Of a DNA stretch of 64,000 nt, positions 7,701 to 25,179 are shown piece after piece. The position numbers and the translations under genes were made by a program. The notes under the pieces are model-generated. The model saw only the letters and a list, made by a program, of their open reading frames with translations, was not told where the DNA came from and ran no database searches. Within the stretch, counting starts at the first letter, position 1. The number at the start of each line of letters is the position of its first letter. Origin of the DNA: Nostoc sp. B(2019) (GTDB taxonomy: Bacteria; Cyanobacteriota; Cyanobacteriia; Cyanobacteriales; Nostocaceae); assembly GCF_010091925.1 (NCBI RefSeq), contig NZ_WVID01000010.1, positions 215,298-279,297 of the forward strand. Direction: 5' to 3'.

Positions 7701-7769
7701 CTCATTTTGTTACCTGTAAGATATCTGGACATTAAAATCCCTTACCCCTTGCTCTCATGTTTGAATAGT

Positions 7770-9469: not shown

Positions 9470-9641
9470 CATCCCAGCTTGGCTTTCACAACTTCAAGCA
9501 GAGTCAAAATAAACATTGTAGTTTGCAATGCGATCACCCTACTTGATGAATTCAAGCAAAAGCAATTTCTCTACCGTCTCATGATTATTGCCTTTTATGA
9601 GTTGCATTCTCACGTCAAAAATCTTCATGAAACTTATATTC

Positions 9642-9671
9642 CGATATATCGTGATATATCACGATATATCG
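9642..9671. promoter_or_regulatory. Perfect 30-bp palindrome, probable PadR operator
   Basis: Three GATATATC blocks at 10-bp spacing form a perfect palindrome (CGATATATCG at each end, GTGATATATCAC in the centre). It ends 32 bp before the PadR-family start at 9704. The one-turn periodicity suits a dimeric winged-helix repressor contacting successive grooves. Autoregulation is inferred from position. Confidence 0.75.
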
Positions 9672-9703
9672 TATATTAGAGAAAGTTGATTTGAGATTCA
9701 CTT

Positions 9704-10327: not shown

Positions 10328-10335
10328 GTGTGACC

Positions 10336-11466: not shown

Positions 11467-12258
11467 TTAGACAACCAATTTTGCTCCAGAACCCATGATT
11501 TGTTTGACGATCTCATTAATTTTTTGAGTCCACGGATGATCTGGATACCGCAAACAAAAAATACCACTGCTCCCTAAATTAAACATCTCTTCACAAACAG
11601 GCAGAATTCCAGCCACAGGAGTTTCGTAGGTATTTTGTACTCGTTGGCGTAACTCCTTGAAATCTAAAGATGGCAGCGCTTTGTTGATTACTAGCAACAT
11701 CTTAGGCACTTCTAACTTCCGAGCAACATCGACCGCCACTGCTGTCCCTTGGTAATCTTGTTTATCTGGACGGAGAATCAGTACAAGGACATCAGAGAGA
11801 ATGATCGATAGCAAAGTTTCTTCGTTAATACCGGGGTGAGTGTCAATCAACAGATAGTCTAGTTTTAAACGACGAACTAGATTACGCAAACCATCGTTAA
11901 GCAGCCGTGCATCATAGCCCTCGCGCAAGATTCGGGAAATGTCACTCATCCTAATACTGGAAGGAATTAGATGAATACTCCCCTGTCTACCAAAAAATGT
12001 TTGTTTTTGTTTCAAAATAGAGCTAACGTCATAAACTGCTTCTTCTATCGGACAACGACCCCATAGATAATCGTTCAGGGTGTAGCGGATTCGATCTTCT
12101 TCAAGGCCAAACAGGATGTGAATTCCTGGCGATTGGATATCTGTATCAACAACCCCAACTCGCCGTCCAGAGCGAGCGATGAGGGTAGCGAGATTACTTG
12201 TGACGTTTGATTTACCAGTTCCACCACGGAATGAGTGAATAGAAATAATTTCAGGCAT
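11467..12258 (-). CDS. MinD/ParA-type P-loop ATPase
   Basis: A 263-residue deviant-Walker ATPase of the SIMIBI class. The start is set at ATG 12258, giving MPEIISIHSFRGGTGKSN with the P-loop at 10-18 (signature lysine R11 replaces the usual K). VVDTDIQSPG (about 34-43) is the switch-I-like motif and LLIDTHPGINEETL the Walker B region. A specific role in chromosome or septum positioning is not shown. It lies 150 bases downstream of the CxxCH/HAMP sensor gene on the same strand, and the two probably form a unit. I infer that the ATPase is spatially or functionally coupled to that membrane sensor. Confidence 0.85.
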   Translation of the reverse strand: MPEIISIHSFRGGTGKSNVTSNLATLIARSGRRVGVVDTDIQSPGIHILFGLEEDRIRYTLNDYLWGRCPIEEAVYDVSSILKQKQTFFGRQGSIHLIPSSIRMSDISRILREGYDARLLNDGLRNLVRRLKLDYLLIDTHPGINEETLLSIILSDVLVLILRPDKQDYQGTAVAVDVARKLEVPKMLLVINKALPSLDFKELRQRVQNTYETPVAGILPVCEEMFNLGSSGIFCLRYPDHPWTQKINEIVKQIMGSGAKLVV

Positions 12259-12408
12259 AATAATCCTCAATTGTGAATAGGATACAGGAGACAAGATGTA
12301 AAAAACAGAAGTCAGGAATTATAAATTAATTACTCTGCACGGGCTAAACGCCCCGCTAGCGCTAAAATTACTGAGCACTTTATTGAAAGCTCATCTCGTG
12401 CGAAAACA

Positions 12409-13473
12409 TTATTCATTTGCAGCGTTTCGTTTGCTTCTCATTGCTTTTGCCTCCTCTTGCAATTTTTGGAACGTTGTTGATTCGGCAATTTCCGCAACTT
12501 GACGCGCACGTTTGGCATCGTCAACTTCGATACGTAGTGTATGCAACTGTTGTTTAAGTTTTTGTTCACGAGCATAGATTTCATGCATCATGCGTTGAAA
12601 AACTCGTCCCAACTGTCCTAATTCATCATTGCGTTTCACAATCGACGTTAGCTTTTGGCGATCAAACTCCTCTGCTTCTTCAGCACTAATTTCATCCATA
12701 CTAATTTTCTGAGCGAGTTGCGCCATTGGTTTGAGTGGTTGCAGCACATTTCGTTTCAGTAAATAATTAATTAGCAAAATGACTAGAGCAAAGATGCCAA
12801 TAAATAGGCTAATGAATGAAACAGAAGCGCGATTGGCATCATCAAACACTTTGCTAGCAGGAACGTAAATAATTTGAGTGCCTATAATCTCATTGAGTTT
12901 CCATCCAAAACCATTTTCTGAGCCATAACTTATGATGTGGCTTTTTGGAGCAGCTTCAGGGGTGCTATGGCAACGTAAACATGTCTGATTTTTAATAGAA
13001 AATGGACGAGCGCTGTAAAACAACTTCTCATCAAAAGAGTCACGAAAACCGGATACATTTTTCAGATCTGGTTGATTGCGAAACTTTTCGATAAGCTGCG
13101 TTTCAAATATATCTGCTTTATCTCGCAAATTAGTTGGATTTAGGTTGGCATCTTTGTAGAAGAAGTCTTTATATTCTTCGTTTTTGCGAAGATTCTCAAA
13201 TACTTCTCTCACCGCATAGCTGGGAATGCTTTCAGGGACAAACGTGGATTGAGTCTCCACCATAGGTATCAGGAGTGGACTGATATGCATGTTTGTGAAG
13301 TTTCTCACTGAGTTCATCATTTCTGCAAGAATTTGGCTTCGATAACCAATTTCGGCTTCCGCTTTTTGCTCAAGTGCATGAGATAAAGCAAAACCACTAA
13401 CTGCGATCGCACCGATGAACACCAGCGATAGAAGTAAGGTAAATTTGGTTGCTAATTTAAATCTATTCAACAT
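12409..13473 (-). CDS. Tll0287-like (DUF3365) haem-type HAMP sensor
   Basis: A 354-residue membrane protein. It has membrane segment 1 at about 10-32 and an extracytoplasmic DUF3365/Tll0287-like sensor domain (about 40-210) carrying one haem-c motif C165-L-R-C168-H169. Membrane segment 2 lies at about 218-238, followed by a HAMP domain (about 240-305) and a C-terminal coiled coil (about 305-354). There is no kinase, cyclase or methyl-accepting domain, so output must go to a partner. The MinD-like ATPase encoded just downstream is the obvious candidate. Covalent haem would make it a redox or gas sensor; this follows from the motif and related structures but is not proven here. Confidence 0.85.
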   Translation of the reverse strand: MLNRFKLATKFTLLLSLVFIGAIAVSGFALSHALEQKAEAEIGYRSQILAEMMNSVRNFTNMHISPLLIPMVETQSTFVPESIPSYAVREVFENLRKNEEYKDFFYKDANLNPTNLRDKADIFETQLIEKFRNQPDLKNVSGFRDSFDEKLFYSARPFSIKNQTCLRCHSTPEAAPKSHIISYGSENGFGWKLNEIIGTQIIYVPASKVFDDANRASVSFISLFIGIFALVILLINYLLKRNVLQPLKPMAQLAQKISMDEISAEEAEEFDRQKLTSIVKRNDELGQLGRVFQRMMHEIYAREQKLKQQLHTLRIEVDDAKRARQVAEIAESTTFQKLQEEAKAMRSKRNAANE

Positions 13474-13658
13474 TGCTGTTTCCGTTTGTGTTTACAACAT
13501 CGCTAGAAATATATGGGTAATGATTCATTAAATTTAATTTTTTTAATGATGAGCGTAGAATGCTGTTATTTATGACAAATAAATCTAATCTGCATTCATG
13601 CTTACAAATCTAGTCATACAGCGATATGCAATTGAATTCCAGATTTCAAGGCAAATTC

Positions 13659-13669
13659 ATGACTTTTGT
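13659..13669. promoter_or_regulatory. ATGACTTTTGT motif upstream of the peptide cluster
   Basis: Its reverse complement ACAAAAGTCAT recurs inside the palindrome at 23839-23852, and a related site lies at 26808-26823. It is 235 bases before the first leader-peptide gene. This may be an operator for a shared regulator; support is sequence similarity only. Confidence 0.3.
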
Positions 13670-13903
13670 TGGAGCAAGCTCCGTCAGCCTATAACGAAAG
13701 TCTTATGCATCGCTCAATATGATGGAGCGAAAGTTATACGGCATCTACTTACTTAGCTTAGGCAAAATCTTAGACGTTTTTCAGATGCGGAGAACTGAGT
13801 TGAATTCGTATTCTTAAGACATGAAGCGAGGAAAGCGAAACACGCCAACCAGCATATCGCTTGTAGTTTACCTAGCTAACAACACTAAAAAGGAAAAAAC
13901 ACA

Positions 13904-14152
13904 ATGTCTAACGAAACTAATTACCAAGCTCAAGAACTTTCTATTGAAGAACTCGATGTTGTCGCTGGTGGTACTGGCCTTGACCAACTGCTAGTAAAAG
14001 ACTTCGAGGCTTCCTTTGACCAAGCTTCTATCAAGGATGTTCGCGCTAACAGTGTCGGCCCCAACGGTGCTCAAAGCATTGAAGCTACTCAAATCGACCA
14101 AACACGAACAGTTGCAGACAATGAACTCATCGCTAAGTTAGGTGGCTTCTAA
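13904..14152 (+). CDS. Double-glycine leader peptide, tandem copy 1
   Basis: An 82-residue secreted-peptide precursor. The leader (1-23) ends ELSIEELDVVAGG, a classic GG site for C39-peptidase cleavage. The predicted core of 59 residues (TGLDQLL to KLGGF) has no cysteine, a net negative charge of about -4 by count, and few Ser/Thr runs, so it is unlike lanthipeptide or thiazole precursors. AAGGA lies 9 bases before ATG. It is the first of three copies at exact 318-bp spacing; positions 13931-14144 are identical to 14561-14774. The cyanobacterial GG-leader 'bacteriocin' label would be applied by homology, but activity is not evident. Confidence 0.88.
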   Translation: MSNETNYQAQELSIEELDVVAGGTGLDQLLVKDFEASFDQASIKDVRANSVGPNGAQSIEATQIDQTRTVADNELIAKLGGF

Positions 14153-14221
14153 GACTGCACCTTTAACTTCAAGCAACATTCTTTAAAGTCAACAAAAACC
14201 AAAAAATCAGGAGAAACAATC

Positions 14222-14470
14222 ATGTCTGACGAAATTGATTACCAACCTCAAGAACTTTCTATTGAAGAACTCGATGTCGTTGCTGGTGGTGCTGGTCTTG
14301 ACCAACTGCTGTTAAAAGACTTCGATGCTTCTTTCGAGCAAGCTTCTGTCAAAGATGTCCGCGCAATTAATGTCGGCCCTAACGGTGTTCAAGCTGTTGA
14401 AGTAACTCAAATCGACCAAACTAAAGCAGTTGCTAGTAACGATGTCCTCGCTTTGATTGGTGACTTCTAA
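14222..14470 (+). CDS. Double-glycine leader peptide, tandem copy 2
   Basis: An 82-residue paralogue of the neighbouring genes. The leader ends ELSIEELDVVAGG; the core differs from copies 1 and 3 at about twenty positions while keeping KDVRA..VGPNG and TQIDQT. It is cysteine-free and acidic. AGGAG lies 8 bases before ATG. It is separated from copy 1 by a 69-base spacer that is itself repeated after this gene, so the duplicated unit is gene plus spacer. Substitutions are mostly conservative (D/E, I/V, L/V), which suggests selection on the core. Confidence 0.88.
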   Translation: MSDEIDYQPQELSIEELDVVAGGAGLDQLLLKDFDASFEQASVKDVRAINVGPNGVQAVEVTQIDQTKAVASNDVLALIGDF

Positions 14471-14539
14471 GACTGCGCCTTCAACTTCAAGCAACATTCC
14501 TTAACGTTCACAAAAACCAAAAAATTAGGAGAAACAATC

Positions 14540-14782
14540 ATGTCTAACGAAATCAAGCACCAAGAACTTTCTATTGAAGAACTCGATGTTGTCGCTGGTG
14601 GTACTGGCCTTGACCAACTGCTAGTAAAAGACTTCGAGGCTTCCTTTGACCAAGCTTCTATCAAGGATGTTCGCGCTAACAGTGTCGGCCCCAACGGTGC
14701 TCAAAGCATTGAAGCTACTCAAATCGACCAAACACGAACAGTTGCAGACAATGAACTCATCGCTAAGTTAGGTGACTTCTAA
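14540..14782 (+). CDS. Double-glycine leader peptide, tandem copy 3
   Basis: An 80-residue precursor. The core is identical to copy 1 except for the penultimate residue (D instead of G), and the first few leader residues differ (two codons shorter). The coding DNA is identical to copy 1 over 214 bp, although copy 2 lies between them. This points to gene conversion or a nested recent duplication. AGGAG lies 8 bases before ATG. The transcript would next meet an inverted repeat at 14837-14888 before the fourth peptide gene. Confidence 0.88.
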   Translation: MSNEIKHQELSIEELDVVAGGTGLDQLLVKDFEASFDQASIKDVRANSVGPNGAQSIEATQIDQTRTVADNELIAKLGDF

Positions 14783-14836
14783 GACTGCGCCTTCAACCTC
14801 AAACAACATTCCTTAACTTAATAGGTCGTAATGGCT

Positions 14837-14888
14837 CGGAAGGAGGATTCACTTAATGGCTGCCCAGCTTTATCGTGAATCCCTTCCG
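14837..14888 (+). promoter_or_regulatory. Long inverted repeat inside peptide cluster
   Basis: CGGAAGGAGGATTCAC (14837-14852) pairs with GTGAATCCCTTCCG (14875-14888), 14 pairs with a two-base bulge and a 22-base loop. There is no T-run. A partial terminator or RNA-processing hairpin here would let the three upstream peptides be made in excess over the transporters, as in many leader-peptide operons (inference). Confidence 0.55.
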
Positions 14889-14925
14889 TCTAATCTAAAT
14901 TTAACACACGGCGCGAGGAGATCCT

Positions 14926-15225
14926 ATGTCAGGTGACGAAATTACTCCGAATAACGAGGCAATCGAGTTATCGGATGAGGATTTAGACGAGGTAGCCGGT
15001 GGTTTCAGCCTGCGTTTGACGGCTGCGCGGTTTCAGCAATCAAAATTGACATCTGTCGAATCAATAGGATTAGGGTCAAGTAATTGCTCAGCACAGTCAG
15101 CATTTCACGCAGAAACCACAGAGTCGTCACTCTTCCAACTCACTATTGTCGATGCAACAACCGAGGATCTAAAAGCTCTCGGCGAGTTGTTTGGAGATAT
15201 GTCTGCAATCGATGGTTCTGAATAA
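14926..15225 (+). CDS. Double-glycine leader peptide, divergent type
   Basis: A 99-residue precursor with leader ending ELSDEDLDEVAGG (cleavage after about residue 26). The 73-residue core starts FSLRLTAARF, contains a single cysteine (SSNCSAQ) and a Ser/Thr-rich middle, and has a strongly acidic C-terminus (TTEDLKALGELFGDM). Net charge by count is about -6. GAGGAG lies 6 bases before ATG. One cysteine rules out an internal ring or disulfide but would allow dimerisation. It is not similar to copies 1-3 beyond the leader, so the cassette exports several unrelated cores. Confidence 0.85.
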   Translation: MSGDEITPNNEAIELSDEDLDEVAGGFSLRLTAARFQQSKLTSVESIGLGSSNCSAQSAFHAETTESSLFQLTIVDATTEDLKALGELFGDMSAIDGSE

Positions 15226-15343
15226 ACAGAGTTTCTAGAGTGAATAGTATGCAGTTAAATCAATTCAAATCTAGCACTTCGCTTAATGAAACAAAGCAAA
15301 CACAATGACAAATGGAATAACACAGTAAGGAGAAAGAATTGCA

Positions 15344-15589
15344 ATGGAAAATATGAAACACGATAAACCGCTAGAGTTGTCAGAGCAAGACTTGGCAGAG
15401 GTTTCCGGTGGTGCCTTTGTGCCTGATGACTATCACCAGAGTCCTATAAACGATCTATCCGGTGCTGCTGAAGTGATTAAAAAACAACTTGAGAATACAA
15501 AACTTCCTTATTGGAATGACAACAAACCGAACATTTATTCGGACAAGTACAGCGATTCTCAAACATATAGCAGCGAATCGCCAACTTAG
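15344..15589 (+). CDS. Double-glycine leader peptide, Tyr/Ser/Asn-rich core
   Basis: An 81-residue precursor. The leader ends ELSEQDLAEVSGG (cleavage after about residue 23). The 58-residue core begins AFVPDDYHQ and ends in a Ser/Tyr/Asp-rich tail (YSDKYSDSQTYSSESPT). It has no cysteine and a net negative charge. AAGGAG lies 12 bases before the ATG at 15344. It shares only the leader with the other four genes. An inverted repeat at 15601-15649 separates it from the CNB-domain gene. Confidence 0.82.
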   Translation: MENMKHDKPLELSEQDLAEVSGGAFVPDDYHQSPINDLSGAAEVIKKQLENTKLPYWNDNKPNIYSDKYSDSQTYSSESPT

Positions 15590-15600
15590 TCAATCGCGCG

Positions 15601-15649
15601 ATGGGGAGATTGATCGACTTACGAATTAGTATAATTTCTCACTCCCCAT
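15601..15649 (+). promoter_or_regulatory. Inverted repeat between peptide and export genes
   Basis: ATGGGGAG (15601-15608) is the inverse of CTCCCCAT (15642-15649), with a 33-base loop. It follows the last peptide gene by about 12 bases, so it could be a second attenuation point before the export machinery. The stem is short and the loop long, so support is modest. Confidence 0.35.
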
Positions 15650-15688
15650 TTCTCTCCCGTTAGCAGAACACAAGGAAGTTAAATTATT

Positions 15689-16786
15689 ATGACAGAAGTT
15701 CTACTTAAGGAACTGACAAATAGCGATGTTGACTGGATCTTGGCAACGGGTCAAAGAGAAGAAGTTACTGCTGGCACGATCCTCGTTCGCCAAGGAGCAC
15801 CTGTTGATGCACTCTACATTCTGCTAGATGGCGCATTGACCGTTTCTGTTGCTCAGGCTGACGACAATCCCATCGGTCGGGCGTTTGCTGCTTTGGAAGG
15901 TGGCGAACTGTCAGGACGGGAGATTGCGAGACTCACAAATGGTGAGGTGGTAGGAGAAGTACCCTTTTTAGCATCCTACCAGTCTTCTACTACGGTCAAG
16001 GCAATCAGAAAGTCGCTTGTTTTGATGATTCCTCAGCAGCAGTTAACTAAAAAATTGCAGGAAGATGTCACATTTGCCGCTCATCTTTATCGCGCGATCG
16101 CAGTTTTGCTAGCTCACCGATTAGAACAAATAGTAAATCAAATTGGACAAAGCACGATTGTGCTTTTTCAGCCGCAAATTCGAGAGATTTTGTTTACGTT
16201 TGCAGAATTGAATGATAGCGATATCGGTTGGATGATTGCTGCGGGGAATGCCGTAAGAATTCCTGCGGGAGCGGTGTTGTTTCATGCCGGCAGACCCGTT
16301 GACGCTCTCTATATTTTATTGGATGGGAAGATGGTGGCTTCGAGCGCTGAGGATATGGACAATCCCCTGACGCGTGCCTTTTCAAACTTGGAAGATACAG
16401 ATCGTGTAGAACGAGAGTTTGCGAAATTATCGCGGGGTGACATAGTTGGTGAAACACCCTTTGTCGAAGCGAGTCCACCTGCAATGACGATTCGGGCGGT
16501 TGAAGATGCGATCGTGCTATCAATTCCTCGGTGGCGACTGGCGGCCAAATTGCTGCATGATGTTGGGTTTGCTGCACGATTTTATCGAGTTTTAGCAATT
16601 TTGTTAACAGACAAACAGCAAGCAATAATTAATCGGTTAGGTTACGGCAGAATTACGTATAGCTCAGGTCAATCTTTAGATGAACGCTTGACCTATGAGG
16701 ATGAACTGAGTTCTGGCTTTTTAGCTCAAGTGACGCTGGCGGGTACGCGATTTGACTGGATGCTGAAGCAGATTCGCGGTAGTTGA
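15689..16786 (+). CDS. Tandem cyclic-nucleotide-binding-fold protein of export cassette
   Basis: A 365-residue protein made of two cNMP-binding-type beta-roll domains (about 1-155 and 165-320). Each shows the pattern ILVRQGAPVDALYILLDGALTVS / VLFHAGRPVDALYILLDGKMVAS, then a GE(V/T)PF stretch where a phosphate-binding cassette would be. Canonical cNMP arginines are not obvious, so ligand binding is uncertain. There is no DNA-binding domain. Such proteins accompany NHLP-type bacteriocin export genes, and the 975-residue transporter here also starts with a similar region. I infer a gate or chaperone for export. AAGGAAG lies upstream of ATG. Confidence 0.82.
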   Translation: MTEVLLKELTNSDVDWILATGQREEVTAGTILVRQGAPVDALYILLDGALTVSVAQADDNPIGRAFAALEGGELSGREIARLTNGEVVGEVPFLASYQSSTTVKAIRKSLVLMIPQQQLTKKLQEDVTFAAHLYRAIAVLLAHRLEQIVNQIGQSTIVLFQPQIREILFTFAELNDSDIGWMIAAGNAVRIPAGAVLFHAGRPVDALYILLDGKMVASSAEDMDNPLTRAFSNLEDTDRVEREFAKLSRGDIVGETPFVEASPPAMTIRAVEDAIVLSIPRWRLAAKLLHDVGFAARFYRVLAILLTDKQQAIINRLGYGRITYSSGQSLDERLTYEDELSSGFLAQVTLAGTRFDWMLKQIRGS

Positions 16787-16796
16787 AATTTATGGG

Positions 16797-16900
16797 TATG
16801 GGGGAAGAGGGAAATGGGGAAGAGGGAAATGGGGAAAAGGGGGGAAAGGAAAAACCATCCCCTTAGCCTTTAACCTTTAACCTTTTCCCCCTCTTAAAAA
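16797..16900. repeat. G-rich gggaaatgggga tract and complementary C-rich tail
   Basis: Several GGGAAATGGGGA-like units (16797-16850) are followed by CCTTTAACCTTTAACC and a C-rich run. The same style of tract occurs at 48280-48365, 53205-53350 and 53885-53930. These are Nostoc-type intergenic filler repeats; this copy separates the CNB gene from the HlyD gene. Confidence 0.6.
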
Positions 16901-16970
16901 TCCCCAGTTCTCACAGTCGCTACTTTGCCGCTATTTTTATGCAAATTTCTATAACTTGAATGGAGTCAGT

Positions 16971-18413
16971 ATGGTTTCGACCAACAAAAACAACTTATTC
17001 CGAAAAGAAGCGCTTGATCGTTTATCTTCCCCGGAGCGACTCGATCAGCTAATGCAGGTGGTTCAGCCGCAGAAGTGGATTCCGTTGGCCGCGATGGGAT
17101 CTCTGATTGCTGTTGGATTGGCCTGGAGTGTTTTTGGTCGCATTCCCATTACCATTGCTGGGCAAGGCGTGGTGGTTTATCCTAGCAAGGTCGCGGCGTT
17201 TCAGTCCCCTAGTTCGGGGCAGGTTCTCATTCTTTATGTTCGTCCTGGCGATCGCGTCAAGAAAGGGCAGGTACTAGCGACGATTGACCAAACTGAACTT
17301 CAAGAAAATTTGAAACTGGCGCGGATTAAGCTTGTTCAACTTCAAGAACAAGACCGCGATGCCAATTCACTGCGACTTCAGCGAACGGTTTTAGATAAAG
17401 GTGCGATTCAACAACAACGTCAGGCGCTCCAGCAAACTTTAAAGACAACCCAATCGGTAACGCCAATTCTGCGGGATAAAGGTCTGGAGTCGATTCGCAA
17501 AGAGCGTCAGTCTTTACAGGAACAGTTACAGACGACGCGGGATCTAGTACCCACTTTCAAAGATCGATTTGAACTGCGTCAGCAGTTACGCCGGGAGGGG
17601 GCTGTTTCGAGTGATACCGTCCTTCAGGCGCAACAGGAATTTCTTAACAGCAAAAGCAGAATCAACGAAATTGAATCGCAACTCAAACAACTTGATGTCA
17701 AAGAAGCGGATGCAGAACGACAATTTTTAGCAAATTTAAATGCAACCAAAGAACTGCAAGCTCAGTTAGCAACACTGGATACTAAACTAGCTAGTCAAGC
17801 AGAACAAGATTTAGGTATTTCTACTAATCGTAAAAAAGAAATTCAAGAGACAGAGCGAGCGATCGCTCAATTAGAATCACAATTAAAAGGAAAAAATCAG
17901 GTTACTAGCAATTTCAACGGCCGGGTTTTAGAAGTTTCTGCTGTGCCTGGACAAACCCTAGAAGAAGGCGCTCGCATTGGCACAATTGAAGCTCAAGACT
18001 CTGGCAATAAGTTAGTCAGTGTGGCATTCTTCCCGGTAAGCGAAGGTAAAAAGATTCAAAAGGGCATGGAGTTGCAAGTCACTCCTTCTACCGTTAAACG
18101 AGAACGCTTTGGGGGCATTGTCGCAAAGGTTACGAATGTGTCTGCGTTCCCGGTGACGAAAGAAGGTGCATCGAGTGTTGTGGGCGGTCTGGAAGTTTTG
18201 CAAGGGTTAACCACAGAAGGGCCACAAATTCAAGTTTTTGCTGAACTCCAGCCAGACCCCTCGACTAAAAGCCGTTTTCAGTGGTCGTCATCTAAGGGGC
18301 CAGAAACCGAAATTACCTCTGGAACCACTACCTCAGTGCGCGTCAAAGTCGATGAACAATCTCCGATTTCCTTTGTGTTTCCAATTTTGCGATCGTGGAG
18401 TGGAATGTATTGA
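16971..18413 (+). CDS. HlyD-family adaptor of NHLP-type peptide export
   Basis: A periplasmic adaptor (membrane-fusion protein), 480 residues from ATG 16971, which is preceded by GGAG at 5 bases; a TTG five codons upstream is less likely. There is one membrane segment at about 37-55. A biotinyl-lipoyl-like half motif follows (GQVLILYVRPGDRVKKGQVLATID, about 85-108). The long coiled-coil hairpin spans about 115-290, then the second lipoyl half (VPGQTLEEGARIGTIE) and a beta-barrel domain. It links the ABC transporter to the cell envelope. The next gene begins 2 bases after its stop, so the two are translationally coupled. Confidence 0.92.
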   Translation: MVSTNKNNLFRKEALDRLSSPERLDQLMQVVQPQKWIPLAAMGSLIAVGLAWSVFGRIPITIAGQGVVVYPSKVAAFQSPSSGQVLILYVRPGDRVKKGQVLATIDQTELQENLKLARIKLVQLQEQDRDANSLRLQRTVLDKGAIQQQRQALQQTLKTTQSVTPILRDKGLESIRKERQSLQEQLQTTRDLVPTFKDRFELRQQLRREGAVSSDTVLQAQQEFLNSKSRINEIESQLKQLDVKEADAERQFLANLNATKELQAQLATLDTKLASQAEQDLGISTNRKKEIQETERAIAQLESQLKGKNQVTSNFNGRVLEVSAVPGQTLEEGARIGTIEAQDSGNKLVSVAFFPVSEGKKIQKGMELQVTPSTVKRERFGGIVAKVTNVSAFPVTKEGASSVVGGLEVLQGLTTEGPQIQVFAELQPDPSTKSRFQWSSSKGPETEITSGTTTSVRVKVDEQSPISFVFPILRSWSGMY

Positions 18414-18415
18414 TT

Positions 18416-20662
18416 ATGCGGCGAATTCAATCACAAATTGGGCGTACATTTAGACAAATTCGGCGGGTTTTCAGCCGTCCTGATCGCCGCCGTCGGACTC
18501 CCACCCTCTTACAAATGGAGGCGGTGGAATGCGGTGCAGCAGCGCTGGGTATTATTTTAGGGTACTACGATCGCATCGTGCCCCTGGCAGAACTCCGTCA
18601 AGCTTGTGGCGTTTCACGAGATGGAAGTAAAGCATCGAATATTATCAACGCGGCTCGCAGATATGGGTTACAGGCTAAAGGCTTCAAGGTCGATTTGGAT
18701 GGGTTACGCAAACTTGAATGTCCTTATATTGTCTTTTGGAATTTCAACCATTTTCTGGTAGTCGAGGGATTTGCCAAAGACAAAGTTTATCTTAACGATC
18801 CTGCCACCGGGCCTCGGACGATTTCGCCAGCAGAATTTGATCAGTCCTTTACTGGGGTGGTGCTGGTCGTTGAACCGAGTACAGAATTCCAGCCAGGAGG
18901 ACGTAAACCGAGCCTGGCACTAGCGTTATGGGATCGATTGCAGAGTTCGCTTGGAGCGCTTATTTATTGTGTAATCGCCGGATTGCTTTTAGTAATTCCT
19001 GGATTAGCCATCCCTGCATTCTCACAAGCATTTGTCGATAATGTCTTGATTGAAGGCAGAAATGATTGGTTACGGCCTTTAATTCTCGGCATGATTCTCA
19101 CAGCAATATTGAATGGTTTTCTCACGTTGCTTCAGCTGCAATTTCTGCGGCGCATGAAAATTAAGCTGGCTGTGGGGATGTCCAGTCGGTTTTTATGGCA
19201 TATTCTGCGATTGCCAGTCAGTTTTTATGATCAGCGATTTGCGGGAGAAATTAGCAGCCGTGTCCGCCTCAACGACAGTTTGGCGAACCTACTTTCAGGA
19301 AGATTAGCAACCACAGTCATCTCAGCCTTTACCGTTGTCTTTTATGCCGCAGTGATGCTGCAATATGATGTCGTTCTCACCTTAATTGGCATTGGTTTCG
19401 TGATCGTGAATGTCAGCGTGTGGCGATGGGTTTCGCGGCAGCGCGTTGATGCTAATCTGCGATTAATGCAAGAACAAGGCAAGGTCAGTGGGGTAGCGAT
19501 TTCTGGACTGCAAAGTATGGAGACGCTCAAGGCATCCGGGTTAGAGTCAGAATTCTTTTCTCGCTGGGCAGGCTATTACGCCAAAGCGATTAATGCCCGT
19601 CAGGAAATGGATACGACAAATCAAACTTTGGGTGTGTTGCCGTCATTTCTGACCTCGATTACATCTATGCTTTTATTGGCGGTGGGAGGGCTGCGGGTAA
19701 TGGATGGCGCACTCAGTATCGGGATGCTGATTGCCTTTCAAGCTTTAATGCAAAGGTTTCTAGAGCCTGTGAATAATTTGGTGGGTTTAGCGGGTGAACT
19801 CCAGGAAATGGAGGGCAATTTGAGCCGACTGGATGACGTGTTACGCAATGCGATCGATCCTGCTGTAGAGCGAGAAAGAAGTGTGTCACCAACTCATGCC
19901 CTTCCTGCCGCGAATGTTCGGCTTCAGGGCTATGTTGAACTCCGCAATATCACGTTTGGCTATAACCGCTCTGCACCTCCTTTAATCGAAAATCTCAATC
20001 TTTCACTTAAGCCCGGTCAACGAGTCGCTCTAGTGGGTGGCAGTGGTTCTGGTAAGTCAACTGTTGCCAAGCTGGTGTGTGGATTATACGAACCGTGGGC
20101 GGGGGAAATTTTATTTGATGGTCAACCCAGAAAAGATATTCCCCGACCAATTATCACTAATTCAGTTGCCCTCGTTGAGCAAGATATCTCGCTATTTGCA
20201 GGCAGTGTCCGCGACAATCTCACGCTTTGGGATTCAACTGTTCCCTTTAGTAACTTGGTTCGCGCTTGTAAAGACGCCGCCATTCAAGATGTGGTGCTTT
20301 CGATGCCTGGAGGCTATAACGCTGACCTTGCAGAAGGGGCAACTAATATGAGTGGTGGGCAAAGACAACGCTTAGAAATTGCCCGGACTTTAGTGAATAA
20401 TCCGGCAATTCTGGTGATGGATGAAGCGACTAGTGCGCTTGATGCTGAGGCAGAAAAGATTATTGATCAAAAACTCCGGGAGCGTGGTTGTACTTGTGTA
20501 ATTGTGGCGCATCGGTTGAGCACTATTCGAGATTGTGACGAAATTATTGTTTTTGATCGCGGCAAGGTGGTGCAACGGGGCACGCATGAGGAGTTACAGC
20601 AGATGGAAGGTAAGTATTTACAATTAATTCGCAGTGAAGGGGAAGCACTTCAGGAGGCGTGA
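18416..20662 (+). CDS. NHLP-type ABC transporter with C39 peptidase
   Basis: A 748-residue peptidase/permease/ATPase that removes GG leaders and exports the cores. The start is ATG 18416, right after the HlyD stop; a GTG seven codons earlier overlaps it. The C39 peptidase domain (about 28-150) has C39 (MEAVECGAA), H112 (NFNHFLVVEG) and D128 (LNDPATGP), a complete catalytic set. Six membrane helices span about 170-450. The ATPase (about 510-745) has Walker A GGSGSGKST, signature MSGGQRQRLE and Walker B ILVMDEATSALD. An intact peptidase and ATPase support a working system, and the five GG peptides just upstream are the expected substrates. Confidence 0.95.
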   Translation: MRRIQSQIGRTFRQIRRVFSRPDRRRRTPTLLQMEAVECGAAALGIILGYYDRIVPLAELRQACGVSRDGSKASNIINAARRYGLQAKGFKVDLDGLRKLECPYIVFWNFNHFLVVEGFAKDKVYLNDPATGPRTISPAEFDQSFTGVVLVVEPSTEFQPGGRKPSLALALWDRLQSSLGALIYCVIAGLLLVIPGLAIPAFSQAFVDNVLIEGRNDWLRPLILGMILTAILNGFLTLLQLQFLRRMKIKLAVGMSSRFLWHILRLPVSFYDQRFAGEISSRVRLNDSLANLLSGRLATTVISAFTVVFYAAVMLQYDVVLTLIGIGFVIVNVSVWRWVSRQRVDANLRLMQEQGKVSGVAISGLQSMETLKASGLESEFFSRWAGYYAKAINARQEMDTTNQTLGVLPSFLTSITSMLLLAVGGLRVMDGALSIGMLIAFQALMQRFLEPVNNLVGLAGELQEMEGNLSRLDDVLRNAIDPAVERERSVSPTHALPAANVRLQGYVELRNITFGYNRSAPPLIENLNLSLKPGQRVALVGGSGSGKSTVAKLVCGLYEPWAGEILFDGQPRKDIPRPIITNSVALVEQDISLFAGSVRDNLTLWDSTVPFSNLVRACKDAAIQDVVLSMPGGYNADLAEGATNMSGGQRQRLEIARTLVNNPAILVMDEATSALDAEAEKIIDQKLRERGCTCVIVAHRLSTIRDCDEIIVFDRGKVVQRGTHEELQQMEGKYLQLIRSEGEALQEA

Positions 20663-20679
20663 GTTAATTAAGATTTATC

Positions 20680-20790
20680 TCGCGCAAAGGCGCAAAGGCG
20701 CAAAGGAAGAACGCAAGAGTGTGGTCTAAATAATTGTGAAAAAGTACGATAACTCAATCTTTCTCTCTGCGTCTCTGCGTGAAATTTTTC
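20680..20790. repeat. CGCAAAGG tandem repeat and inverted TCTCTGCGTC partner
   Basis: GCGCAAAGGCGCAAAGGCGCAAAGG (9-bp unit, about 20685-20710) faces CTCTCTGCGTCTCTGCGTG at 20763-20781 in the spacer between the two ABC genes. It is a common Nostoc intergenic repeat. It could fold, but the genes on both sides still appear to belong to one cassette. Confidence 0.6.
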
Positions 20791-20815
20791 ATATTTTTAT
20801 AGAGCAGGAATAGAC

Positions 20816-23743
20816 ATGTTAGACCAAATTCGGATTGTCAGTCTGCCCGGAGAGTACTATCACTTCAAAGGCAATGAGCCAATTATTCTTGATGACCCTG
20901 AGACGATTTGGGTTGTGAAATCGGGTTCATTGGCGCTGTTTGCGATTCATATAAAAGAGGGGATTGCTGAAGGAACTCGCCGCTATTTATTTACTACCCG
21001 AACTAGACAGGCTATGTTTGGCATCGCTAGCGATTCTGGGTCGATGCCTTATCAACTTCTGGCGGTGTCGATTGAAGAAACTGAACTTCTCAAGGTTTCG
21101 CTCAAAGATTTTCGTGAATTTATTGCGGATGGTAATGGCGAAGCACTGACTTTAGTGGAGGGATGGATTGAGCAACTGGGACTGGCGCTGTCTTCGATTA
21201 TTCCGCCTGTGCTGCCGTTTCTAGAGGAAGGGGTTCGCTATTTCTCACTCACCAATGGTCAGATTTTTCAACCGCAGAGAGAACTAGTATCTTGGGTGCA
21301 AATTCAGCGTGGTTACGCAATCTGGATGGGGTTTGAAGAATTGTTGCTGACGCCGCAATTAGGACTGTTGCCGTTGAGTGCAGATATGTGGTTTCAAGCC
21401 GAGGATACAATCGAGTTGGAAACTCTGAGTACGGCTGAGATCAACGATGCTGATACTCTGTTCACGGGGATCTTGCGACTTCATGTCTGCTTTCTTCAAA
21501 GCCTGAATCTTCTAGAACAGCAAGAAAAAGAGGCAGAATCACACCGCTTTCAAGAACGGCAACAGCTCAATCATCAAGTGATGGAGGAGACGCTGGGCGA
21601 GTTAGCTTCGTTGCTGCAATCTCGGCAAACTGCCACTTCTACTCAGCTGGGAGCCAATGACCCTGAGCAAGCTTTGCTCGTCGCTGCGGGCGCAGTCGGG
21701 CGGACGTTGGGCGTAACAATTCGACCGCCAGCGAAGTCTGAAGACCTCAAGCGGGTTCAAGATCCTCTACAAGCGATCGCCCGTGCTTCTCGTTTACGAA
21801 TGCGAACGATCGCTTTGCAAGGTCAGTGGTGGAAGAAGGATTGCGGTGCTATGCTCGCTTACACGATGGAAGACAACCATCCTGTGGCGCTGTTGCCTGT
21901 ATCTGATACGCGTTATGAGATATTTGATCCAATTGAGCGATCGCGCACTCTGGTTAATGCTAAAAGTGCTGCTAAACTCGCGCTGACTGGCTACACCTTC
22001 TACCGCCCATTACCAGATAAAGTCCTGACTACGTTCGACTTGCTAAAATTTGCCCTGCAAGGACATTATAAGGAATTAATGGTTGTCCTAACTGCGGGTG
22101 TGGCGGTAACTTTATTGGGGATGATCACCCCGCAAGCAACCGCCGTGTTGATTGATAGTGCGATTCCTGATGCTAACCGGGGTTTATTGGTGCAAATTGC
22201 CTTAGCGCTGCTAGCAACTGCATTTGGTAGCACCTTGTTTCAACTTGCTCAAGGTTTCGCCATCATGCGCGTGGAAACCTTTGCCGATGCCTCGACCCAA
22301 GCAGCAGTCTGGGATCGCCTCTTAAATCTTAAAGCATCATTCTTCCGTCAGTATGCGATCGGTGACTTGAGTTCACGCGTTAGCGCTGTCAGTCAAATCC
22401 GCCAAAAGCTTAGTAGCACGGTTCTCAGAAGTATTTTCACTAGCTTGTTCGCTCTGCTAAACTTAGGACTGCTTTTTTACTACAACGGTTCGCTAGCGTT
22501 AATTGCTACTTTTGTCGCATTTATAAACATTACTATTACTCTTGTTTCAGGAATTTCCACTCTGCGTAAGGTTCGTCCGTTACTAGAGTTACAAGGACAA
22601 CTCTTTGGGGTGATGGTGCAGTTAATCAACGGCGTCACCAAACTCCGAGTAGCTGGAGCTGAAGCCCGCGCCTTCGCTTTTTGGGGAAAACAGTATAGCC
22701 AGCAAATCAAATGGATGTTGAGTACCCAAGGTATTGAAGATGTTCTGGCTGTAGTTAATAAAATTTTACCTGTATTAACCACAGCGACACTCTTCTGGTT
22801 TGCAACAAGTTTACTTGAGCAAGCCCCTTCACAAGCAGGTGGTTTATCCACAGGTGTATTTTTAGCGTTTAATGCGGCATTTGGGACGTTTATCGGTGGA
22901 GCCACTAGCCTCAGCAGCACGATTATAGATGTCCTGAAAGTAGTGCCGTTGTGGGAACGAGCGCAGCCCATTCTCGAAGCCAAGCCGGAAGTAGACTCTG
23001 AAAAAGCTGATCCAGGTCGGCTTTCCGGCCGCGTGGTTGTCGATCATGTGATTTTCCGCTATCGAGATGACGGGCCGCTGACGTTGGATGATGTCAGCAT
23101 CCACGCTGAACCTGGCGAGTTTATCGCTTTTGTGGGAGCTTCTGGCAGTGGAAAATCAACGCTGTTTCGGTTATTACTAGGGTTCGATGTTCCCGAATCT
23201 GGCACAATCTACTATGACGGACAAGATTTAGCGGGGCTGGATGTTCATGCGGTGCGTCGGCAATTAGGAGTCGTGATGCAAAATAGCCGATTGACATCTG
23301 CGTCCATTTTCGAGAATATCGCCAGTGGGGCGATGATCACAATGGATGAGGCGTGGGAAGCGGCGCGGATGGCTGGCTTTGCCGAAGATGTCGAATCGAT
23401 GCCGATGGGAATGCACACGGTGATTAGTGAAGGGGGAACCAATCTCTCTGGAGGACAACGGCAGAGATTATTGATTGCCCGATCGCTAGTATTAAAACCC
23501 AAAATCTTGTTATTTGACGAAGCCACCAGTGCTTTAGATAATCGCACCCAAGCGATTGTTAGTCAAAGCTTGGAGCGCCTGAAGGTAACACGGATTGCGA
23601 TCGCTCACCGTCTAAGTACCATTCGTAACGCTGATCGCATCTATGTCTTCCAGAATGGTCGCGTGGTGCAGGAAGGCAATTTTAATCAACTCGCCAATCA
23701 AGCGGGACTGTTTGCCCAACTCATGGCACGGCAAAAGCTTTGA
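20816..23743 (+). CDS. NHLP-type bacteriocin export ABC transporter permease/ATPase
   Basis: A 975-residue second ABC component. Residues 1-290 form a cytosolic region starting with a beta-roll, cNMP-binding-like segment (IILDDPETIWVVKSGSLALF) that is typical of NHLP/NHLM systems. Residues about 300-400 look like a degenerate C39 domain without the catalytic Cys/His pattern. The membrane domain is about 420-700. The ATPase (about 740-975) has Walker A GASGSGKST, signature LSGGQRQRLL and Walker B ILLFDEATSALD. It probably pairs with the 748-residue transporter as a heterodimer, a two-ABC arrangement characteristic of this export type. It is the last gene of the cassette. Confidence 0.93.
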   Translation: MLDQIRIVSLPGEYYHFKGNEPIILDDPETIWVVKSGSLALFAIHIKEGIAEGTRRYLFTTRTRQAMFGIASDSGSMPYQLLAVSIEETELLKVSLKDFREFIADGNGEALTLVEGWIEQLGLALSSIIPPVLPFLEEGVRYFSLTNGQIFQPQRELVSWVQIQRGYAIWMGFEELLLTPQLGLLPLSADMWFQAEDTIELETLSTAEINDADTLFTGILRLHVCFLQSLNLLEQQEKEAESHRFQERQQLNHQVMEETLGELASLLQSRQTATSTQLGANDPEQALLVAAGAVGRTLGVTIRPPAKSEDLKRVQDPLQAIARASRLRMRTIALQGQWWKKDCGAMLAYTMEDNHPVALLPVSDTRYEIFDPIERSRTLVNAKSAAKLALTGYTFYRPLPDKVLTTFDLLKFALQGHYKELMVVLTAGVAVTLLGMITPQATAVLIDSAIPDANRGLLVQIALALLATAFGSTLFQLAQGFAIMRVETFADASTQAAVWDRLLNLKASFFRQYAIGDLSSRVSAVSQIRQKLSSTVLRSIFTSLFALLNLGLLFYYNGSLALIATFVAFINITITLVSGISTLRKVRPLLELQGQLFGVMVQLINGVTKLRVAGAEARAFAFWGKQYSQQIKWMLSTQGIEDVLAVVNKILPVLTTATLFWFATSLLEQAPSQAGGLSTGVFLAFNAAFGTFIGGATSLSSTIIDVLKVVPLWERAQPILEAKPEVDSEKADPGRLSGRVVVDHVIFRYRDDGPLTLDDVSIHAEPGEFIAFVGASGSGKSTLFRLLLGFDVPESGTIYYDGQDLAGLDVHAVRRQLGVVMQNSRLTSASIFENIASGAMITMDEAWEAARMAGFAEDVESMPMGMHTVISEGGTNLSGGQRQRLLIARSLVLKPKILLFDEATSALDNRTQAIVSQSLERLKVTRIAIAHRLSTIRNADRIYVFQNGRVVQEGNFNQLANQAGLFAQLMARQKL

Positions 23744-23838
23744 ATTTGAGCGAATGTTAGCAACGCATGGGAAACGGATGAAACAAATCACGAAATTAAA
23801 CCGTGATGCTCATTCGTTTCATTTTCTTTCAAGCTTAC

Positions 23839-23852
23839 ATGACAAAAGTCAT
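23839..23852. promoter_or_regulatory. ATGAC-AAAA-GTCAT inverted repeat
   Basis: A 5-bp dyad with a 4-base spacer, 136 bases before the small Mo-nitrogenase-domain gene; a further AAAGTCAT half-site lies at 23878-23885. It shares an 11-mer with 13659-13669 (reverse complement) and resembles CATGACA-TT-TGTCATG at 26808-26823. It is a candidate operator. Confidence 0.4.
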
Positions 23853-23987
23853 AGTAAAACATAGTTTTAGAATAACTAAAGTCATAGAGTAATTCCCTAT
23901 TTAGTTGAGGTCAATCCATGACCTTATTCAGAAGTTTATCCTATCTTAAACCTCTACAATAAGACTATTATAATTGAGGATAAATTG

Positions 23988-24272
23988 ATGAATTGCCTAA
24001 TTTCATCTCCGAGAATTGACCTACTATTACCCATCAAAACATGGCTTGAATCATTAGAAATTCGCCAGCCAAAAATGGCTCGATTACTGTGTAGACTAAT
24101 TCCCGCTAGTTGTCCATTTGAACGAGAAATTAAGCTATTTGATCGCACGATCGCTTACATTCCACCGCTTTGTAAACTTAATCCTTTTTATGAGCAGATA
24201 GTTGCAATTCGCTTCAAATCTCTGTGTTACTTAGCCAATGAATGTAACGAAGATATTACACTCTATTGTTAA
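23988..24272 (+). CDS. Mo-dependent nitrogenase C-terminal-domain protein
   Basis: A 94-residue protein matching the small cyanobacterial 'Mo-dependent nitrogenase, C-terminal' family. Typical blocks are visible: RQPKMARLLCRLIPASCPFERE, IPPLCKLNPFYEQ and LCYLANECNED, with five conserved-looking cysteines. Despite the family name it is not nitrogenase itself; free-standing copies are frequent in Nostocales and their role is unclear. The start is ATG 23988, preceded by GAGGA at 7 bases; a TTG one codon earlier is less likely. It is followed 13 bases later by the DUF3455 gene, so the two are likely co-transcribed. Confidence 0.85.
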   Translation: MNCLISSPRIDLLLPIKTWLESLEIRQPKMARLLCRLIPASCPFEREIKLFDRTIAYIPPLCKLNPFYEQIVAIRFKSLCYLANECNEDITLYC

Positions 24273-24285
24273 AGGATAAATCATT

Positions 24286-24906
24286 ATGTCGGCTACTTTT
24301 GGCGAAATTATTAAGCTCAATTTTAGCCTCGTTTTTTCCCTACTGGCGTTGAGTACGTCTAGTGTCAGTGAAGAGACTGCGATCGCACAATATACCCAAG
24401 GTATTGCTAATTCATCTCTCATACCAAATAGTCTAAAAGTTCCTAGCGGTCAGCAACTTCTCTTAAAAGCATCTGCAAAGGGTACACAAATCTATGTCTG
24501 CAAAGCAAAATCAGCAGAATACCCTGTTGAGTATGAGTGGACGCTTAAAGCTCCCGATGCCGTTTTGCTAAATGAGCAAGGACAAGACTTAGGCAAGCAT
24601 TATGCAGGCCCGACATGGGAAGCGAAAGACGGTAGTAAAGTTATAGCGGAGGTGAAATCTAAGGCAAATGCACCACAAGAAGGTGCAATTCCCTGGCTAT
24701 TGTTGGGGGTGCGATCGCATGAAGGAAATGGTATCTTCCGCCGAGTCAATTGGATTCAACGGATCAATACGGTTGGTGGGAAACCTCCTATTCAAGGGTG
24801 TAACAATTCCTCTCAGAATCGCGAGATTCGCGTCAACTATACGGCTGATTACCTGTTTTACGGAGGCAAAACTGTTAGCAGGTTTTTTCAGAACAAATAT
24901 TACTGA
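24286..24906 (+). CDS. Exported DUF3455 domain protein
   Basis: A 206-residue protein with a signal-peptide-like N-terminus (hydrophobic about 10-24, ending near 35) and a DUF3455 domain (about 45-195). Signature blocks are GTQIYVCKA, WTLKAPDAVL, GKHYAGPTWEAKDGS and the end NYTADYLFYGG. The domain resembles the cupredoxin-associated, superoxide dismutase-like extracellular proteins seen in fungi and bacteria, but no function is established. AAAGGA lies upstream of ATG. It is close behind the nitrogenase-domain gene on the same strand. Confidence 0.82.
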   Translation: MSATFGEIIKLNFSLVFSLLALSTSSVSEETAIAQYTQGIANSSLIPNSLKVPSGQQLLLKASAKGTQIYVCKAKSAEYPVEYEWTLKAPDAVLLNEQGQDLGKHYAGPTWEAKDGSKVIAEVKSKANAPQEGAIPWLLLGVRSHEGNGIFRRVNWIQRINTVGGKPPIQGCNNSSQNREIRVNYTADYLFYGGKTVSRFFQNKYY

Positions 24907-25179
24907 TAATGTAATAGATGTTGCGGCTCGCAAACATAAACGCTCTAGCTTGCAAACAAGACAATCGTTGGCTCAAATTAAGGGTCAAGATATTTACCAA
25001 AGTAGAAGTATTTGCGGACTTGCCCTTTGAGGGTAAAGCCAGAATAAAAGTCAATTCCCAAGGTATGAGTATTTCTTTGAGCATCAGCGTTTTATGATTG
25101 CAGAAAGGCGATCGCTTTTTTAATTAATTAAATCAGAATAAATTATCTTAAATTAGAGACACAATATTGCTTTTTAGAA

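What the first reader, a model, noticed from the sequence alone, without database searches (positions are those of the whole stretch)
13904..23743. Peptide-export cassette with five anionic GG-leader peptides and no modifying enzyme
Seen: five precursors with LDxVAGG-type leaders, then a tandem beta-roll protein, HlyD, a C39 peptidase ABC transporter with intact Cys-His-Asp and a second NHLP-type ABC transporter, all on one strand. Established: NHLP systems usually export modified peptides (LanM, TOMM or similar), and bacteriocins are usually cationic. Inferred: here no tailoring enzyme is present, four cores have no cysteine, and all have net negative charge by count. The products may be unmodified acidic proteins of about 58-73 residues with a non-bactericidal job such as surface coating, calcium binding or signalling.
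Basis: partly seen in the sequence, partly recalled or inferred. Interest (0 to 1): 0.78.

Follow-up and report, generated by a model that had tools for sequence, protein, structure and literature searches.

The report
Swappable secreted peptides, conserved cyanobacterial exporter
A filamentous cyanobacterium carries a known type of peptide-export gene set whose small secreted proteins, probably released without chemical modification, are swapped between strains while the export machinery stays almost the same, which suggests strain-specific surface or competition molecules rather than generic acidic proteins.

Summary
In detail: five GG-leader precursors, a tandem cNMP-type protein (the "beta-roll"), HlyD, a C39 ABC transporter and a second ABC transporter on one strand. 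The cassette is not new. It has the layout of the "group V" cluster of Wang et al. 2011, and four of five precursors score over cut-off as NCBIfam "CTB family bacteriocin". Acidic precursors and clusters without LanM are already published. No tailoring enzyme recurs (in four or more loci) beside 19 related CTB loci, and the host has no LanM match, so unmodified products are likely.

New here: among 13 loci (window included) the C39 transporter is 85-99% identical, but the tandem precursors (p1-p3) fall into four unlike core types (17-36% identical between types). Types switch between loci with 98% identical transporters, and the tree of three cassette proteins rejects each multi-member type as a clade. 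DNA homology can stop exactly at the GG codons. The fourth precursor's first 50 residues co-vary with the type; its tail does not clearly. Both are predicted as long beta-hairpins. Best reading: unmodified hairpin subunits of a strain-typed extracellular assembly, resembling EbfG biofilm proteins in function; a narrow-range bacteriocin is the main rival. Function is inferred, not shown.

The parts
11467..12294 (-). MinD/ParA-like ATPase, divergent from the operon
   Evidence: Pfam ParA 68 bits, CbiA 53 bits; MinD and Tll0287 homologues both within the fetched stretch in 42 of the 67 named loci with at least 5 kb upstream of the cNMP gene; in L132, L134 and L189 one or both lie downstream
12409..13473 (-). 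Tll0287-like sensor domain plus HAMP membrane protein, divergent
   Evidence: Pfam PF11845 137 bits, HAMP 29 bits; recurrence as above
13838..15541 (+). Exchanged block holding all five precursors: no blastn match with L117 at E <= 1e-8, while the flanks are 84-94% identical
   Evidence: blastn against Komarekiella L117 and seven other loci; repeated for nine pairs of loci
13904..14152 (+). Precursor p1 (CTB family), core 59 aa
   Evidence: NF038167 55.4 bits
14222..14470 (+). Precursor p2 (CTB family), core 59 aa
   Evidence: NF038167 51.1 bits
14540..14782 (+). Precursor p3 (CTB family), core 59 aa; predicted long beta-hairpin
   Evidence: NF038167 58.8 bits; AlphaFold2 strands 13-29 and 32-48, pLDDT 72
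14926..15225 (+). Precursor p4, core 73 aa: long beta-hairpin that co-varies with the p1-p3 type, plus better conserved C-terminal helix/tail
   Evidence: NF038167 38.9 bits; AlphaFold2 pLDDT 79; hairpin versus tail comparison
15344..15589 (+). Precursor p5, core 58 aa, restricted to the window's cassette clade
   Evidence: profile hits in 14 of 14 loci (window, L117-L129) and in none of the other 67 of 81; below the NF038167 cut-off
15689..16786 (+). Tandem cNMP-binding-domain protein (TIGR03896)
   Evidence: 307 bits, cut-off 161; two PF00027 stretches
16956..18413 (+). HlyD membrane-fusion protein (TIGR03794)
   Evidence: 396 bits, cut-off 156
18395..20662 (+). C39 peptidase ABC transporter (TIGR03796), short type
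   Evidence: 1189 bits, cut-off 853; Peptidase_C39 at residues 36-163
20816..23743 (+). Second ABC transporter without C39 (TIGR03797), N-terminal extension with weak cNMP-domain match
   Evidence: 1061 bits, cut-off 709; PF00027 18.8 bits, below its cut-off
24286..24906 (+). DUF3455 protein; downstream neighbour, membership doubtful
   Evidence: PF11937 110 bits; homologues in 8 of 80 named loci, all among L117-L125

Best explanation
The locus is a leader-cleaving type I export cassette for small, ribosomally made, unmodified proteins. The C39 domain would cut after GG, and HlyD with the two ABC transporters would move the mature chains out (inferred from the families; not tested here). p1-p3 are related copies of one main subunit. 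p4 is a companion whose hairpin must match the main subunit and whose more constant helical tail meets a constant partner. p5 is an accessory of this cassette clade. Both p3 and p4 are predicted as one long two-stranded beta-hairpin with a short C-terminal helix, a shape suited to side-by-side assembly. I propose that they build an extracellular fibre or coat whose type differs between strains, so that subunits assemble with their own kind, as in biofilm, sheath or filament contact. The type is changed by exchange of cores, perhaps through the conserved leader DNA, on an almost unchanged exporter. Shown: cassette, discordant types on near-identical exporters, co-variation of p4. Predicted: hairpins. 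Inferred: no modification, assembly, like-with-like function, the recombination handle.
For: Core identity among 13 loci: median 0.29 (tandem) and 0.52 (p4) against 0.89 (C39 transporter), with pairs such as window/L117 at 0.98 transporter and 0.24 tandem core. Best core identity is 0.17-0.36 in 57 between-type pairs and 0.58-1.0 in 21 within-type pairs. The tree of C39+HlyD+cNMP proteins rejects each of the three multi-member types as a clade (AU p 5e-5, 2e-6, 4e-9). Homology stops at the GG codons: L126/L129 leader 63 of 69 nt identical, next 60 nt 18 of 60. Tandem type against p4 hairpin given transporter: partial Mantel r 0.78, p 0.0002 with 13 loci; 0.65, p 0.0002 with 9; 0.44, p 0.021 with 8. 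Hairpin predictions. The break in synteny with L117 holds only the five precursors; the other ORFs of 45 aa or more there overlap them and have at most 75 aa, so no separate immunity or receptor gene is evident. EbfG1-3 show amyloid formation in a heterologous system and EbfG1-4 are needed for biofilm in S. elongatus (passages of PMC9981879, part 1 of 5 of PMC4997328).
Against: No assembly, export or phenotype was measured. The p3 model is modest (five models 51-72 pLDDT), and neither model matches a solved fold at E <= 0.001; the nearest shapes, not significant, are hairpins of pore-forming toxins. EbfG sequences could not be compared, and the EbfG exporter is probably group III. p4 homologues elsewhere are cationic (19 of 20). 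LanM relatives sit near the cNMP gene in 5 of 80 named loci, all more distant. Type is weakly tied to the transporter (Mantel 0.30, p 0.018; 23 of 200 label shuffles need as few changes). On the p4 tree GLDQ and GANG are not single clades. The p4 tail also shows r 0.20, p 0.049 with 13 loci, though not with 9 or 8. The Mantel tests use 8-13 related loci. Exchange of types is also what bacteriocins do.
Confidence: 0.45

Rival explanations
1. The products are narrow-range bacteriocins or allelopathic peptides. Cores are exchanged because competitors become resistant; p4 is the second peptide of a pair or confers self-protection.
For: NCBIfam names the family bacteriocin. Discordant types with a co-varying partner. 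Four CTB genes of Nodularia spumigena rise in phosphate-starved cultures (log2 changes of 1.16-1.75 in the second column of the passage; the authors read them as allelopathic; PMC9846622, passages). Nearest solved shapes, not significant, are pore-toxin hairpins.
Against: No separate immunity gene is evident in the exchanged block. All 56 tandem cores are acidic and Cys-free. Two to nine related tandem copies per locus in the 13 loci fit dosage of a structural subunit at least as well as a toxin.
Confidence: 0.27
2. An ordinary NHLP/group V secretion locus whose precursors diverge quickly under weak constraint; no special role for the types.
For: Hypervariability after Gly-Gly in NHLP precursors is long known (PMC2887384, section 7). 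A boundary at GG is expected if only the leader is constrained.
Against: Drift alone does not readily give three unlike types on exporters 98% identical (L126, L128, L129), nor the same type on both sides of a well-supported split, nor co-variation concentrated in the p4 hairpin.
Confidence: 0.15
3. The precursors are RiPPs modified in trans by an enzyme elsewhere in the genome.
For: The host has one YcaO protein beside an amidohydrolase on another contig. Wang et al. suggest that stand-alone LanM of Prochlorococcus MIT9313 works with distant group V clusters (PMC3140520, part 3).
Against: Host has no LANC-like or LanM dehydratase match; LanM-type rings need Cys, absent from 56 of 56 tandem cores. 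LanM lies in none of the fetched stretches of the 51 closest named loci L117-L167, some of them cut short by contig ends. The Lant_dehydr_N search was silent in its controls, so it shows nothing.
Confidence: 0.08

Closest known systems
Group V cyanobacterial bacteriocin gene cluster (Wang, Fewer and Sivonen 2011, PMC3140520)
   Same: Short C39 ABC transporter, protein of two CAP_ED (cNMP) domains, extra ABC transporter without C39, HlyD, several GG-leader precursors; LanM clusters are a separate group.
   Different: Parts 1-3 of 5 and a term search of its main text show no mention of the MinD/Tll0287 pair, of recombination, of core types swapped on a constant exporter, or of a co-varying companion precursor.
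CTB family bacteriocin, NCBIfam NF038167
   Same: p1-p4 over its cut-off.
   Different: p5 is under the cut-off; the name rests on annotation, no tested activity known to me.
EbfG1-4 and PteB of Synechococcus elongatus PCC 7942 (PMC4997328, PMC9981879)
   Same: Several small GG-leader proteins secreted by a C39 transporter, no tailoring enzyme in the parts read; EbfG1-3 amyloid-prone, EbfG4 not: a set of like subunits plus an odd one.
   Different: Wang et al. list that strain with one group I and one group III cluster and none of group V (which of the two holds ebfG is my inference: III). Mature EbfG are said to have no homologues in other cyanobacteria. NF038167 does not ring in the S. elongatus control genome.
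NHLP hypervariable precursors (Haft, Basu and Mitchell 2010, PMC2887384)
   Same: Conserved leader, hypervariable core, same three-gene transporter.
   Different: The passages and section read link NHLPs to TOMM or LanM enzymes; here none is found, and whole core types differ at one syntenic place.

Membership tests
Group V cluster of Wang et al. 2011 | Short-type C39 peptidase ABC transporter | tested here: met
   TIGR03796 1189 bits, no cNMP domain found in it
Group V cluster of Wang et al. 2011 | Protein made of two CAP_ED (cNMP) domains | tested here: met
   TIGR03896 307 bits; two PF00027 stretches
Group V cluster of Wang et al. 2011 | Extra ABC transporter without C39 | tested here: met
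   TIGR03797 1061 bits, no C39 match
Group V cluster of Wang et al. 2011 | CAP_ED domain at the N-terminus of that extra transporter | tested here: inconclusive
   PF00027 18.8 bits, cut-off 27.5
CTB family bacteriocin (NF038167) | Score over the curated cut-off, p1-p4 | tested here: met
   55, 51, 59, 39 bits; cut-off 32
CTB family bacteriocin (NF038167) | Score over the curated cut-off, p5 | tested here: not met
   13.5 bits
Bacteriocin in the strict sense | Kills or inhibits related bacteria | not testable with these tools
   no assay possible
NHLP leader precursor (TIGR03793) | Score over the curated cut-off | tested here: not met
   only p4 listed, 16.6 bits, cut-off 50.9
Lanthipeptide cluster (group IV) | LanM at the locus or in the genome | tested here: not met
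   no match in the host genome for PF05147 and PF13575; PF13575 rings in 52 of 388 of the class
EbfG/PteB biofilm system | Secreted GG proteins needed for biofilm, amyloid formation | not testable with these tools
   needs experiments; EbfG sequences not at hand
EbfG/PteB biofilm system | Exporter without a second, C39-less ABC transporter (group III, an inferred assignment) | tested here: not met
   the window has the second ABC transporter

The most novel reading that the evidence does not exclude
The locus is a strain-typing system: an almost constant exporter displays one of several old, exchangeable families of beta-hairpin subunits, with a two-part adaptor (p4) whose hairpin matches the subunit type and whose constant tail docks to a constant partner. 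Conserved leader DNA, repeated in each copy, serves as the recombination handle, and types shared across genera are kept by selection for rarity, as in other self-recognition loci.
Probability: 0.3. Interest if true: 0.8.

Novelty: new variant of a known kind. Interest (0 to 1): 0.55.

Why it matters
Wang et al. alone listed 290 putative cyanobacterial bacteriocin precursors, for most of which no product is known. If the cores here are matched, exchangeable subunits of an extracellular assembly, the label is misleading for part of that family. Loci that differ mainly in this block (for example in Nostoc carneum NIES-2107, Nostoc linckia FACHB-104 and Calothrix membranacea FACHB-236, C39 transporters 98% identical) would then let one test strain recognition and matrix specificity directly.

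Tried and rejected
Viral contigs were scanned with the tandem cNMP protein: 5 stretches matched a pattern, none was a relative. PDB sequence search with the same protein: nothing at E <= 0.001. Foldseek of both hairpin models against the PDB: nothing at E <= 0.001; the pore-toxin stem matches (best E 0.08 and 0.19) were rejected as generic long hairpins. Cyclic-nucleotide gating was considered: the phosphate-cassette Arg (motif recalled) is missing in both domains of the window protein and, by eye, in most of the 15 aligned proteins (L047 has an Arg near that place in domain 1), so ligand binding is doubtful and I do not build on it. The LanB-type dehydratase search in the host gave nothing, but its controls were silent. 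Horizontal transfer between orders: GatA is 80% identical between host and G318 while the C39 transporter is 89% (L067); this is one housekeeping gene, so I only note it. Acidity as a functional clue was rejected because p4 homologues outside the clade are cationic in 19 of 20 rows of A3; a looser profile set that also took in some tandem-type cores gave 22 of 43.

Rows dropped: of 197 profile hits 16 could not be split at a leader and 2 had cores under 15 residues, leaving 179 (171 unique: 129 negative, 14 zero, 28 positive); the splitter there cut some cores late, so its charges are approximate and searches are preferred. In one search, L119 (no tandem copy, contig edge) was left out and L130 (no precursor hit) never entered; cores with X or of 35 residues or fewer were dropped. 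A2 took 45 of the 99 tandem cores and A3 34 of its 54 p4 cores. Type labels were given by me from the core sequences before the tree was built.
Full report
What is there. Curated profiles identify the large proteins: tandem cNMP-domain protein TIGR03896, HlyD TIGR03794, C39 ABC transporter TIGR03796 and C39-less ABC transporter TIGR03797, all over cut-off. p1-p4 exceed the cut-off of NF038167 'CTB family bacteriocin'; p5 does not. The host genome has 7.43 Mb in 109 contigs. Its nearest named relatives here are two Komarekiella records: the cNMP protein is 98% identical, GatA 97-98%.

What is already known. Wang et al. 2011 (PMC3140520; parts 1-3 of 5 read) define group V by this layout, count 12 such clusters with 3.08 precursors on average, and state that NHLP and N11P precursors are mostly negative. 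Only 16 of their 145 clusters encode LanM. So neither acidity nor the lack of a tailoring enzyme is unusual. Small GG proteins with a non-antibiotic role are also known: the GG motifs of EbfG1-4 and the C39 Cys of PteB matter for biofilm (PMC4997328, part 1 of 5), and EbfG1-3 give amyloid signs in a heterologous system (PMC9981879, passages).

Modification enzymes. The host has no match to LANC-like or DUF4135, a search that rings in 52 of 388 genomes of the class. One YcaO protein lies on another contig next to an amidohydrolase. Of 63 CTB loci (window included), 19 carry the cNMP protein; 15 of the 19 show the whole exporter. Within 8 kb of their precursors, where the stretches reach that far, the families found in at least four of all 63 loci and present in these 19 were exporter genes, precursors, a MinD-like ATPase and a Tll0287-like protein (7 of 19 each) and a TPR-like protein (4 of 19, judged from the sequence alone); no enzyme of a RiPP kind was among them, and blastp with one LanM and one YcaO found none there. 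Of 80 named loci with the cNMP protein, LanM relatives lie in the fetched stretch in 5 (L170, L171, L174, L188, L191) and a YcaO in 1 (L172); none in the 51 closest, L117-L167. The same exporter type thus seems to serve both modified and, most likely, unmodified products.

A conserved upstream pair. MinD-like and Tll0287-like genes are both in the fetched stretch of 42 of the 67 named loci with at least 5 kb upstream of the cNMP gene. They run opposite to the cassette in the window type and in the same direction in most of L170-L196; in L132, L134 and L189 one or both lie downstream. They look like regular parts of the system. A role in sensing or in placing the exporter is a guess.

Core types. 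Against Komarekiella L117 the window is 88-94% identical in the main blocks from 5396 to 24918, apart from short gaps between genes, except from 13838 to 15541, the stretch with all five precursors. L120 is colinear from 9596 to 23744, with one more tandem copy. In 13 loci (window, L117, L118, L120-L129) I labelled four tandem types by eye: GLDQ (window, L120, L129), LIDV (L117, L118, L126), GANG (L121, L122, L123, L125, L127, L128), ARRF (L124). Best core identity is 0.17-0.36 in the 57 pairs of unlike type and 0.58-1.0 in the 21 pairs of like type; in the 23 unlike pairs with C39 transporters at least 0.90 identical it is 0.22-0.33. Median identity over all pairs is 0.89 for the C39 transporter, 0.88 cNMP, 0.83 HlyD, 0.52 p4, 0.44 p5 and 0.29 for the tandem cores. 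The trio L126, L128, L129 has transporters 0.98 identical but three types, at 0.26-0.32. The tree of three cassette proteins rejects GLDQ, LIDV and GANG as clades (AU p 5e-5, 2e-6, 4e-9) and needs 5 changes where 3 is the least; 23 of 200 shuffles of the labels were as low, so type follows the exporter only weakly, as the simple Mantel value 0.30, p 0.018 also says. On the p4 tree LIDV is one clade (96/93), GLDQ and GANG are not, 4 changes are needed and 0 of 200 shuffles are as low.

Where the break lies. L126 and L129 share 63 of 69 nt up to the GG codons and 18 of 60 after them; for L117/L120 it is 54 of 69 and 16 of 60; for L126/L128 and L128/L129 the ungapped leader figures are 46 and 50 of 69 and the core figures 18 and 21 of 60. 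Between the window and L117 the break comes earlier, 67 nt before the start of p1. A boundary at GG can come from constraint on the leader alone; it is the recurrence of types on discordant exporters that points to exchange. Between the window and L129 the GLDQ cores are 0.88 identical, about as far apart as the transporters (0.89), so the types look old. That fits old polymorphism kept across lineages as well as old transfer; I cannot separate these.

p4 is a two-part protein. Its residues 1-50 have median identity 0.40, residues 51-end 0.78. The first part co-varies with the tandem type after correction for transporter identity: r 0.78, p 0.0002 with 13 loci; 0.65, p 0.0002 with 9; 0.44, p 0.021 with 8. 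The tail gives 0.20, p 0.049; 0.19, p 0.11; 0.14, p 0.14. AlphaFold2 predicts strands 2-22 and 29-49 and helix 53-64 for p4 (pLDDT 79, pTM 0.45), and strands 13-29 and 32-48 and a short helix for p3 (pLDDT 72, five models 51-72, pTM 0.36). The part that co-varies is the predicted hairpin; the more constant part is the predicted helix and tail.

Composition. In the 13 loci 56 of 56 unique tandem cores are net negative and have no Cys, and 14 of 14 p5 cores (window, L117-L129, one per locus) are negative. The 14 p4 cores of the window clade are 12 negative and 2 zero; of 20 p4 cores from other loci in alignment A3, 19 are positive and 1 negative. So charge flips in p4 while its N-terminal sequence pattern is still alignable.

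Interpretation. An exporter held constant, two to nine related tandem copies per locus, a companion co-varying mainly in the hairpin, and no other evident gene in the exchanged block fit subunits that must match each other, more than a toxin with immunity or a signal with a receptor. I therefore favour a strain-typed extracellular assembly at 0.45, with a narrow-range bacteriocin next at 0.27. In Nodularia four CTB genes rise in phosphate-starved cultures (PMC9846622, passages), which does not decide between them.

Literature check. Searches for EbfG, NHLP with cyanobacteria and bacteriocin, 'CTB family bacteriocin', 'bacteriocin-type transport-associated protein', hypervariable double-glycine precursors, cyclic nucleotide-binding with HlyD, core peptide recombination and Tll0287/MinD/bacteriocin (20 of 1,455 papers listed) showed no paper whose title or start of abstract reports core types swapped on a constant exporter. 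Only an open-licence library was searched. Hypervariable cores behind conserved NHLP leaders are known (PMC2887384, section 7). Of PMC9679502 only passages were seen.

Noticed in passing
window 13931-14144 and 14561-14774: p1 and p3 share an identical 214-bp tract (alignment) while p2 between them is clearly diverged, a sign of recent gene conversion within the array.
   Followed up: partly
L087:12183 onward (host contig C11, ending just left of the window): A second C39 ABC transporter with a frame of 1019 aa, probably the long type, lies about 14 kb before p1.
   Followed up: no
L091:9427-14696 (host contig C14): Another host C39 exporter is followed by four GG-leader peptides; three have Asp/Gly-rich or Asp/Lys/Tyr-rich cores with Cys near the end.
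   Followed up: no
L086:8695-9811 (host contig C15): Two GG-leader ORFs, no exporter relative found in the 20 kb fetched, with repetitive Trp/Arg/Gly and GFYGGR-repeat cores.
   Followed up: no
L059, L101, L102, L109, L112: Tandem CTB arrays of 3-8 copies with no C39 transporter relative in the 20 kb fetched; possible reservoirs of cores.
   Followed up: partly
window 4444-5793: The protein starts like the C-terminal half of a split DnaE intein joined to the C-terminal part of DnaE (recognised from memory, no search made).
   Followed up: no
44 CTB loci outside this layout, e.g. L097, L100, L104: 34 of these 44 loci hold a gene of the C39/ABC transporter cluster, at 26-29% identity to the window's C39 transporter where listed, so the family seems to use at least two exporters.
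   Followed up: partly
window 15689-16786: Both phosphate-binding cassettes of the tandem cNMP protein lack the expected Arg (recalled motif), so it may not bind cyclic nucleotides.
   Followed up: partly
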